Source of the DNA: Verrucomicrobiota bacterium
Lineage (GTDB): Bacteria; Verrucomicrobiota; Verrucomicrobiia; Limisphaerales; VHDF01
DNA: 38,080 nucleotides
Assembly: GCA_016871495.1 (NCBI GenBank)
Contig: VHDF01000041.1
Coordinates: forward strand, 1-38,080
Direction of reading: 5' to 3'
The notes beneath the pieces were generated by a model. The model searched no databases and was not told the origin of the DNA. It saw only the letters and a program-made list of their open reading frames with translations. Of this stretch, positions 10,238-12,441 are shown piece by piece. The translations under genes were made by a program, and so were the position numbers. The stretch's first letter is position 1. Every line of letters begins with the position of its first letter.

Positions 10238-10774
10238 GTGAGCAAGAATATCGTCTATTTTGATTTGGAGACCCAGAAGTCGGCGGACGAAGTGGGAGGC
10301 TGGGATCGCATCCGGGACATGCGCATGAGCGTGGGCGTGACGTATTCCACGGCGCGCGGACAGTACCGGATTTACGGAGAGAAGGAAGTGGACGCGTTGA
10401 TCCAGGAACTCTTGCGGGCCGACTTGGTGGTGGGTTTCAACCATCTGCGATTCGATTACGAGGTGCTGCACGGCTATTCAATTGTGGACCTGCGCCAGGC
10501 GCCCACGCTGGATTTGATGGTGGATCTGCAGCGGGTGGTGCAGCGCCGGCTTTCACTGGATTCCGTGGCCGGAGCGACGCTGGGCGTGGAGAAGACAGCT
10601 GAGGGCCTGCAAGCCATCCGATGGTATCGGGAGGGCAAGCTGTTGGAGATTGCCGAGTACTGCTGTTACGATGTGAAGATCACCCGGCTCGTGCATGAGT
10701 ACGGCAGAGCTCAGCGCCAAGTCTTCTTCCACAATCGATTTGGGGCGAAGCAGTCCGCTGCGGTCGAGTGGTAG
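10238..10774 (+). CDS. Small RNase H-like 3'-5' exonuclease (DEDD fold)
   Basis: A 178-residue protein with the three exonuclease motifs of the DnaQ/RNase H-like superfamily. ExoI is DLET (Asp9, Glu11), ExoII is GFNHLRFDYEVL (Asp73), and ExoIII is YCCYD (Tyr141 to Asp145), consistent with a DEDDy-type active site. The domain stands alone without a polymerase or helicase partner, as in YprB-like proteins. The substrate (DNA or RNA) cannot be told. Translation appears to start at GTG 10238. It ends with TAG and converges with the cyclic-nucleotide-binding gene; a hairpin terminator sits between them. Confidence 0.78.
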   Translation: MSKNIVYFDLETQKSADEVGGWDRIRDMRMSVGVTYSTARGQYRIYGEKEVDALIQELLRADLVVGFNHLRFDYEVLHGYSIVDLRQAPTLDLMVDLQRVVQRRLSLDSVAGATLGVEKTAEGLQAIRWYREGKLLEIAEYCCYDVKITRLVHEYGRAQRQVFFHNRFGAKQSAAVEW

Positions 10775-10836: not shown

Positions 10837-11322
10837 TTACTTCTTGGGACCGCCCATGGAAGTGCTGGCTTTGCGAAGCCGGTTGGACAATTCGACGGCG
10901 ATATTCTTCATCACCACCATCCCGAGGTGCGGCTCGCGTTGCACAAGTTCATTGAAGGCGGAACGCTGAACGACGAGCAGGATGCTTGCTTGGGAAGCCA
11001 GGGCGTGCGCATTCCGCGCCGCGCCGTCCAAGAAGGCCAACTCCCCGAAAATCTGTCCGTTCGCCAGGGTGGCGATGGCCTTGGCACCTTCTTCCAGGCA
11101 GATATCCACCTGGCCGCGCATGATGACAAAGGCTTCGTTGCCCTGGTCGCCCTTGTTAAAGATCTTCTCCCCGGGGCGGTAGAGTTTTTGGGTGAAAAGA
11201 CGCGCGATTTTACGGAGCTCGCTATCCCCCAAACCCGAAAAGATGGGCAGGCCGCGCAGGAGATTAATCACCGCCACCCCGATCTTTTGATCCTGGAAAT
11301 TCCGATCCACCAGGTCGGCCAT
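10837..11322 (-). CDS. Cyclic-nucleotide-binding (CRP-like) domain protein or domain
   Basis: A 161-residue frame with one cNMP-binding beta-barrel (about 20-140). FGELAFLDGAARNAHALA (92-109) matches the phosphate-binding cassette, with Arg103 as the likely phosphate ligand. No HTH or other output domain is present in this frame. The upstream acetyltransferase frame ends with TAG and continues in the same reading frame (codons for ARQ, then this ATG). No Shine-Dalgarno sequence precedes the ATG, so I suspect this is the C-terminal domain of one longer protein rather than a free gene. Fusions of acetyltransferase and cNMP-binding domains are known (mycobacterial PatA), though in the opposite domain order. 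It ends with TAA. Confidence 0.8.
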   Translation of the reverse strand: MADLVDRNFQDQKIGVAVINLLRGLPIFSGLGDSELRKIARLFTQKLYRPGEKIFNKGDQGNEAFVIMRGQVDICLEEGAKAIATLANGQIFGELAFLDGAARNAHALASQASILLVVQRSAFNELVQREPHLGMVVMKNIAVELSNRLRKASTSMGGPKK

Positions 11323-11331
11323 TTGCCGGGC

Positions 11332-12441
11332 CTAGTTCGTCAGCGTGAACTGCTCGGCCGAATAGACCATGTTCAGCTTGGCCAGCTTGACCACATCGAC
11401 GTGGCTTCCTTTGAGGAAGAGAAAGGCCGGCATGTAGGCGACCGGCACAAACCCGAGCTGTTCGGCGGTTTTGAGCATGCGCGGGGAGGTCATCACGACG
11501 TCCATCTCGGCAAACACCGCGCCGAGCTGTTCCTGCGAATATTTGACCACGTGGCTCAGGAGGGTGCCAATGCTCAGGTCGTCTGCGGAAAACGAGTCGA
11601 AAACGCGCACACAACGGTCGAGTTCGTCGAAGTGGTAGGCAAGCCCCGCCACGATTTGTCCGTCGCGGCTGGCAAGGACAGCGCGAAGACCCTGTTCGGA
11701 TTTGATCCGCATCATGCCCTGGCCCAAGCTGCCGCCACGCGAGATTTCGACGGCCGGATTGGAGGTCATGACCTGCGTGCGCCACAACTCGAAATCGTCG
11801 TAGGTGGCGTCATTGAGCTGCAATTCAACCTTGAGCGGGCAGCCGGTGACACCATCCCGGATGGTTAAGGGATTGCTGATGCGAAGGGTCTGCAGCACCG
11901 CCGCCGCGAGCTCGCCCACTTGGGGGAGAGATTCGGAGATTTGCATCCGGTTGACGACGTCCGGACGCGGAAACCAGGGGTAATACAAAACGCTTTGCCG
12001 CGTCCGGTGGAGATGCTTCGAAGGTTGAAAGCCGGCGCAGACATAGCCCAGTTCCTCGAAAAGGATCTGCTGCGCGTTGTCGGAGGCAAGAACACGCGCT
12101 ACCACGAGCTGCTGCCGTTGTTCGGCGAGCTCGTTGATTTTCAGGAGGAGATTCTGGGCGGAGCCGTCACGATAAGCTTCGGGATGGAAGAGGCAGCGCC
12201 CGAGATTGGCGACAGGGTTTTGGCTTCCGGGTTCGGCCGGAATGATGGTCGCAGAGGCGAGGACTCTTCCGGCATCGTCGGAAAGCTAGGTTTCGCCTCC
12301 GACGGCGGCATCCAGCTCTGTGGCGGCCCAAGCCGTGTCATAAACCTGCTTGTCAGGATAATCTTCCGCGAGAACCGCTTTGACGAGATCGACCCAAATG
12401 GGTGCGTCAGCGGGGGTGGCATTGCGTATCGTGGCTGGCAT
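11332..12441 (-). pseudogene. GNAT-type acetyltransferase interrupted by an in-frame TAG
   Basis: From the ATG at 12441 (MPATIRNATPADAPIW) a GNAT-like N-terminus runs 51 codons to a TAG at 12286-12288, then continues in the same frame to 11332. After the TAG come FHPEAYRDGSAQNLLL, resembling the acetyl-CoA-binding motif A, and ASDNAQQILFEELGY, resembling motif B. A second GNAT-like unit follows (VVMTSPRMLKTAEQLGF near its end). The terminal TAG (11332-11334) is followed in frame by GCC CGG CAA ATG, the start of the cyclic-nucleotide-binding frame. So one open frame of about 535 codons with two TAGs would give GNAT-GNAT-cNMP. A shorter frame from GTG 12105 would lack motif A. A disabled gene, readthrough or consensus error are all possible. 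Confidence 0.72.

What the first reader, a model, noticed from the sequence alone, without database searches (positions are those of the whole stretch)
10837..12441. One acetyltransferase-cyclic-nucleotide-binding frame contains two in-frame TAG codons
From ATG 12441 to TAA 10837 the minus strand keeps one frame of about 535 codons whose only interruptions are TAG at 12286-12288 and TAG at 11332-11334. The first falls inside the GNAT fold before the acetyl-CoA loop. The second falls between the acetyltransferase part and the cNMP-binding domain, with in-frame ARQ-M following and no ribosome-binding site. Read through, the product would be a GNAT-GNAT-cNMP protein, a domain order opposite to mycobacterial PatA. 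Both codons are one base from TGG. Two ambers in one otherwise coherent frame suggest readthrough, a decaying gene, or base errors.
Basis: partly seen in the sequence, partly recalled or inferred. Interest (0 to 1): 0.78.

Follow-up and report, generated by a model that had tools for sequence, protein, structure and literature searches.

The report
Recently broken acetyltransferase gene, two stops
A conserved bacterial gene for a double acetyltransferase with a cyclic-nucleotide sensor has been cut in this one genome by two single-base stop codons, most likely because it is dispensable and decaying, and there is no sign that the cell reads through the stops.

Summary
One minus-strand frame (12441..10837, 535 codons) holds TAG at codons 52 and 370 and nothing else breaks it. 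In 21 relatives from two collections and in nearly all of the 54 other genomes found in a 245-genome survey of the order, the same protein is one open frame. An AlphaFold model of the read-through protein shows two GNAT domains and a C-terminal cyclic-nucleotide-binding domain. The first TAG replaces a conserved tryptophan codon (TGG in 32 of 36 relatives read there). The second sits at a variable linker site where relatives have mostly His or Gln. Nothing supports reading TAG as sense: no tRNA with anticodon CUA in a genome-wide census, an intact RF1, TAG ending 182 of 1,051 long frames, and other internal TAGs aligning with Tyr, Tyr/Phe/His and Glu. Stop sites are not conserved: one distant relative (G089) also has two TAGs, at different codons, and three others have frameshifted, deleted or truncated copies. 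The essential DnaG control shows about one stop in 150 copies. Best reading: a recently inactivated accessory gene. Base error cannot be excluded without reads. Interest is low; the intact protein family is more interesting than the stops.

The parts
10837..12441 (-). interrupted gene for a tandem GNAT plus cNMP-binding protein, 535 codons with two TAGs
12286..12288 (-). TAG1 (codon 52), at a conserved Trp (TGG in 32 of 36 relatives with a codon there; the others TAC, TAC, TAT, TTG)
11332..11334 (-). TAG2 (codon 370), at a variable linker site (CAC 13, CAG 5, CAT 2, CAA 2, others)
11974..12432 (-). first GNAT domain (model residues 4-156)
   Evidence: weak Pfam
11374..11820 (-). second GNAT domain (model residues 208-356)
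   Evidence: not recognised by Pfam in the window protein
10855..11277 (-). cNMP-binding domain (model residues 389-529)
   Evidence: Pfam PF00027 E 2.7e-17; structure matches
10837..11322 (-). mechanical ORF (ATG 9 nt after TAG2) that could give a free cNMP domain by reinitiation; the ATG is not conserved in relatives
10238..10774 (+). convergent neighbour gene, exonuclease-like by inspection (not tested against a library), conserved next to this gene in relatives (63-78% identity in 9 loci, partial matches in 2 cut by contig ends)

Best explanation
This is a recently inactivated copy of a conserved but accessory gene. The intact protein has two GNAT acetyltransferase domains followed by a cyclic-nucleotide-binding domain, so it probably acetylates a substrate under cAMP or cGMP control (inferred from domains, not shown). 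In this genome two single-base changes made TAG codons. Translation should end after 51 residues, inside the first GNAT domain, so no working enzyme is expected. The second TAG would be a later neutral hit or arose in the same decay.
For: Relatives are single open frames. Intact pairs are under strong purifying selection (dN/dS 0.029/0.838, 0.072/0.662, 0.011/0.077). TAG1 hits a conserved Trp. Both TAGs are one base from codons seen in relatives. The gene is patchy: 55 of 245 genomes of the order have a match at E 1e-60 or better. Independent lesions occur elsewhere in the family: two TAGs at other codons in G089, frameshift plus deletion in G051, loss of the first 76 residues in G147, frame change near residue 20 in G212. 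An essential control gene of similar length (DnaG) has one stop among about 150 listed copies from the same genomes; 4 of 56 versus 1 of 150 gives one-sided Fisher p 0.02. Internal stops elsewhere in this genome fall in accessory genes (PilM, SLBB, CotH, Sel1, DUF3160, transglutaminase-like), with a TAG share in line with the nonsense spectrum expected from codon usage, about 45%.
Against: There is no frameshift, and the frame keeps nearly all conserved residues: 6 deviations in 88 otherwise invariant columns, against 0-4 for most relatives of similar branch length. Decay must therefore be very recent, or the gene may still be made. Two genomes (G000 and G089) each carrying exactly two TAGs and no other lesion is a mild coincidence: four of four TAG has probability 0.04 at a 45% share.
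Confidence: 0.72

Rival explanations
1. One or both TAGs are consensus or assembly errors in a metagenome-assembled contig, and the organism's gene is intact.
For: The rest of the frame is well conserved, both TAGs are single-base differences from common codons, and the same genome shows other single in-frame stops.
Against: In-frame stops are rare in an essential gene over the same set of genomes (about 1 in 150). The internal stops confirmed in this genome sit in accessory genes. Two errors within 1 kb in one gene, inside a 38 kb contig, need a locally poor region.
Confidence: 0.18
2. The cell reads TAG as an amino acid, by a suppressor tRNA, a code change or leaky readthrough, and makes the full-length protein.
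For: The frame stays coherent across both TAGs. Another relative, G089, has two TAGs in an otherwise constrained frame. Several other genes of this genome hold an internal TAG.
Against: No CUA anticodon among the tRNAs found genome-wide, including a C16 tRNA array. RF1 is present and uninterrupted. No PylS above cut-off. TAG ends 182 of 1,051 long frames, and the frame after it is seldom coding (4.4% against 5.7% after TAA and 3.2% after TGA). Internal TAGs align with Trp, His/Gln, Tyr, Tyr/Phe/His and Glu, no single residue. The TAG sites in G089 differ from those here.
Confidence: 0.06
3. The gene is split but still used: internal starts give a GNAT2-only protein and, by termination-reinitiation at the ATG 9 nt after TAG2, a free cNMP-binding protein.
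For: An ATG follows TAG2 at 9 nt. A stand-alone protein similar to the cNMP part exists in G003 (L023).
Against: The ATG is not conserved. No clear ribosome-binding site before the internal starts. The first GNAT domain is destroyed. Relatives keep all three parts fused.
Confidence: 0.04

Closest known systems
Mycobacterial Pat/PatA (cAMP-regulated protein acetyltransferase; NCBIfam NF058543)
   Same: Joins a cNMP-binding domain to a GNAT acetyltransferase (own knowledge); the cNMP parts match (NF058543 positions 1-107 on residues 398-502).
   Different: Opposite domain order, two GNAT domains instead of one, and 32.9 bits against a 460-bit cut-off.
Tandem GNAT proteins (PDB 2wpx/2wpw clavulanic acid pathway, 7q3a MAB_4324, 3tt2)
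   Same: Two GNAT domains in a row; VIA-align Z 12.8-12.9 over 243-252 residues (rmsd 5.3-6.2) spanning model residues 1-343.
   Different: The matched chains are about as long as the tandem GNAT part alone, so no cNMP domain is seen there; sequence identity is only 15-19%.
CRP-type, channel and protein-kinase cNMP-binding domains
   Same: The C-terminal domain has this fold (Z about 16-19) and Pfam PF00027.
   Different: The domain is the last part of an acetyltransferase; no DNA-binding part follows it.
Ordinary bacterial pseudogenes with nonsense mutations
   Same: Intact single-frame relatives, stops one base from the usual codons, unrelated lesions in other lineages.
   Different: Two stops but no frameshift and little other decay, so it must be very young.

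Membership tests
Pseudogene (recent nonsense inactivation) | Relatives encode the same protein as one uninterrupted frame | tested here: met
Pseudogene (recent nonsense inactivation) | Stops lie one base from codons used by relatives | tested here: met
Pseudogene (recent nonsense inactivation) | Loss of constraint on the rest of the frame | tested here: inconclusive
   6 of 88 invariant columns deviate, slightly high; the codon-position ratio is ordinary
Pseudogene (recent nonsense inactivation) | Gene is dispensable: patchy, with independent lesions elsewhere | tested here: met
Pseudogene (recent nonsense inactivation) | TAGs confirmed in raw reads and no full-length product | not testable with these tools
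   no reads or proteomics
TAG recoding or suppression | tRNA with anticodon CUA | tested here: not met
   tRNA census of the 97%-complete genome
TAG recoding or suppression | TAG avoided as a terminator, or RF1 lost | tested here: not met
   182 of 1,051 long frames end in TAG; RF1 478.6 bits, no stops
TAG recoding or suppression | Internal TAGs align with one amino acid, or are conserved at the same site | tested here: not met
Mycobacterial Pat/PatA | N-terminal cNMP domain followed by one GNAT domain, above NF058543 cut-off | tested here: not met
Tandem GNAT acetyltransferase | Two consecutive GNAT folds | tested here: met
   predicted structure and Foldseek/VIA matches; in the window protein Pfam sees only the first
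Tandem GNAT acetyltransferase | Acetyl-CoA binding and acetyl transfer | not tested
   needs an intact relative expressed and assayed

The most novel reading that the evidence does not exclude
TAGs in this gene are tolerated or used: several lineages of this order carry in-frame TAGs in the tandem GNAT-cNMP gene, and low-level readthrough gives a small amount of full-length acetyltransferase beside truncated products.
Probability: 0.05. Interest if true: 0.6.

Novelty: new member of a known kind. Interest (0 to 1): 0.17.

Why it matters
As a broken gene it is ordinary. It is a useful caution that two TAGs in a clean frame are not evidence of recoding until stop usage, tRNAs, RF1 and relatives have been checked. 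The intact family is worth a note: tandem GNAT domains fused to a C-terminal cyclic-nucleotide sensor, in the order opposite to Pat, under strong purifying selection and with a conserved neighbouring gene, yet no full-length family model in Pfam or NCBIfam reached its cut-off.

Tried and rejected
Genome-wide TAG recoding: rejected on tRNA census, RF1, PylS, terminal stop usage and aligned residues. Separate genes in relatives: rejected, they are fused. Excess of TAG among internal stops: not significant (5 of 8 against 45% expected, p 0.26; these eight were picked by eye from the scan). tRNA loci of G089 could not be cut out, so suppression in G089 is untested. Plasmid and viral collections gave no relative. 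One literature search for GNAT-cNMP fusions found only one loosely related paper, which I did not read; the amber-reassignment search gave nothing I used. dN/dS for the window gene itself could not be computed because the nearest relative is 61% identical and synonymous sites are saturated. A codon-usage scan for internal stops was too weak and was replaced by a Markov model.

Full report
Observation. The minus-strand frame 12441..10837 has 535 codons, with TAG at codons 52 and 370 and no other break. This is more than a chance open frame: the read-through translation aligns over its whole length with proteins from genomes of the same order at up to 61% identity. The public records among the relatives are metagenome assemblies, most of them titled Verrucomicrobia. 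The genome itself is unnamed, 5.06 Mb in 201 contigs, 97% complete.

What the intact protein is. Pfam sees a cNMP-binding domain in all 20 family members scanned and GNAT models in several. An AlphaFold model of the read-through protein (TAG read as Trp, mean pLDDT 85) shows two GNAT-like domains, then a cNMP domain. A separate model of residues 1-369 matches solved tandem-GNAT proteins 7q3a, 2wpx and 3tt2 at Z 12.8-12.9 over 243-252 residues. The cNMP part matches CRP and channel or kinase cNMP domains. The order is opposite to Pat, whose NCBIfam model is matched only in its cNMP part and far below cut-off. A cyclic-nucleotide-controlled acetyltransferase is the natural inference, but no activity is shown.

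What the stops replace. Site 52 is TGG in 32 of 36 relatives with a codon there, TAC or TAT in three and TTG in one. Site 370 is variable: CAC 13, CAG 5, CAT 2, CAA 2 and others. TAG is one base from TGG and from CAG. TAG1 lies inside a core strand of the first GNAT domain and should leave a 51-residue fragment (inference from the model).

Is TAG read as sense? Every test I could make says no. RF00005 finds 56 tRNA genes in the whole genome. ARAGORN on the loci and stretches holding them, plus reading by eye of three array members that ARAGORN missed, shows no CUA anticodon. RF1 scores above its cut-off without stops and no PylS passes its cut-off. In 2.3 Mb of this genome 182 of 1,051 long frames end in TAG, and the 90 bases after such a TAG look coding in the same frame in 4.4% of cases, much as after TAA (5.7%) or TGA (3.2%). 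A scan for stops with coding sequence on both sides gave 21 candidates. I judged eight of these to be internal by inspection of the translations: five TAG, two TAA, one TGA. For six of them a Pfam match spans or closely flanks the stop; the L165 and L120 cases have no such match. Five of eight TAG is what nonsense mutation predicts from codon usage (about 45%). Relatives have Tyr (one homologue), Tyr/Phe/His and Glu at the three further TAGs checked, so no single residue fits.

Are the stops shared? No. In 245 genomes of the order 55 have the gene at E 1e-60 or better. Only G089 resembles the window: two TAGs in an otherwise open frame, but at query positions 128 and 204, where its same-genus relative G166 has TAC and CAA. 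G212 shows a frame change near residue 20, G147 lacks residues before 77 with unrelated sequence upstream, and G051 has a frameshift near residue 118 and a deletion. The G147 and G212 readings are mine from three-frame translations and could also be assembly faults. G107 has an extra 93 codons in frame and no stop.

Decay or error? As a control I ran DnaG, a similar-sized essential gene from the same window, over the same 245 genomes. Of the roughly 150 best matches listed one has a stop; matches below that were not listed, so the figure may be low. Against 4 of 56 interrupted copies here, one-sided Fisher p is 0.02; counting only the two copies with clean in-frame stops it is 0.18, so the contrast rests partly on the two less certain copies. 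Base errors alone should hit both genes alike, so at least part of the lesions in this family are probably real. This does not prove the two TAGs of this one genome; reads would. Intact pairs of the family have dN/dS well under 0.2, so the gene is selected where it is kept. The window copy deviates at 6 of 88 otherwise invariant columns, slightly more than relatives of similar branch length, with an ordinary codon-position ratio. If it is a pseudogene, it is young.

Neighbourhood. A convergent gene at 10238-10774 (+), exonuclease-like by inspection, sits beside this gene in eleven of the loci compared (two of them partial), including the decayed G051 copy. This supports orthology of the locus. 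It was not found in the short flank held for G089.

Verdict. A recently inactivated accessory gene is best supported (0.72), base or assembly error next (0.18), readthrough (0.06) and split-gene use (0.04) unlikely.

Noticed in passing
L266 (G089:C19:59101-60687, -): A relative from another family carries two TAGs in the same gene at different codons (query positions 128 and 204) and no other break.
   Followed up: partly
L084:15181 (G000:C3, about 35181, -): A PilM-like gene has an internal TAG where nearly all relatives have Glu; the stop that separates the next (pilN-like) part in many relatives is missing here.
   Followed up: partly
L167:13417 (G000:C21, about 53417, -) and L181:4614 (G000:C31, about 24614, -): Internal TAGs in an SLBB-domain gene (relatives Tyr/Phe/His) and a CotH-like gene (Tyr in one relative).
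   Followed up: partly
L141:4980 (TAG), L165:17804 (TAG), L083:4756 (TGA), L082:17986 (TAA), L120:5018 (TAA): Further single in-frame stops in Sel1-repeat, prepilin-like, DUF3160, transglutaminase-like and outer-membrane-like frames.
   Followed up: partly
L091:6300-14600 (G000:C16, about 44.3-52.6 kb): An array of about 15 tRNA genes on one strand, many with GGTGCGA in place of the usual GGTTCGA T-loop, as in mobile elements or large phages.
   Followed up: partly
L100:400-497 (G000:C7, -): A selenocysteine tRNA (anticodon TCA) is predicted, so TGA recoding may occur in this genome.
   Followed up: no
L271 (G107:C77:13581-15428): A family member with an extra 93 codons inserted in frame between residues 295 and 299.
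   Followed up: no
L023:1369-1938 (+): A stand-alone 189-residue protein similar to the cNMP part (47% identity) in G003.
   Followed up: no
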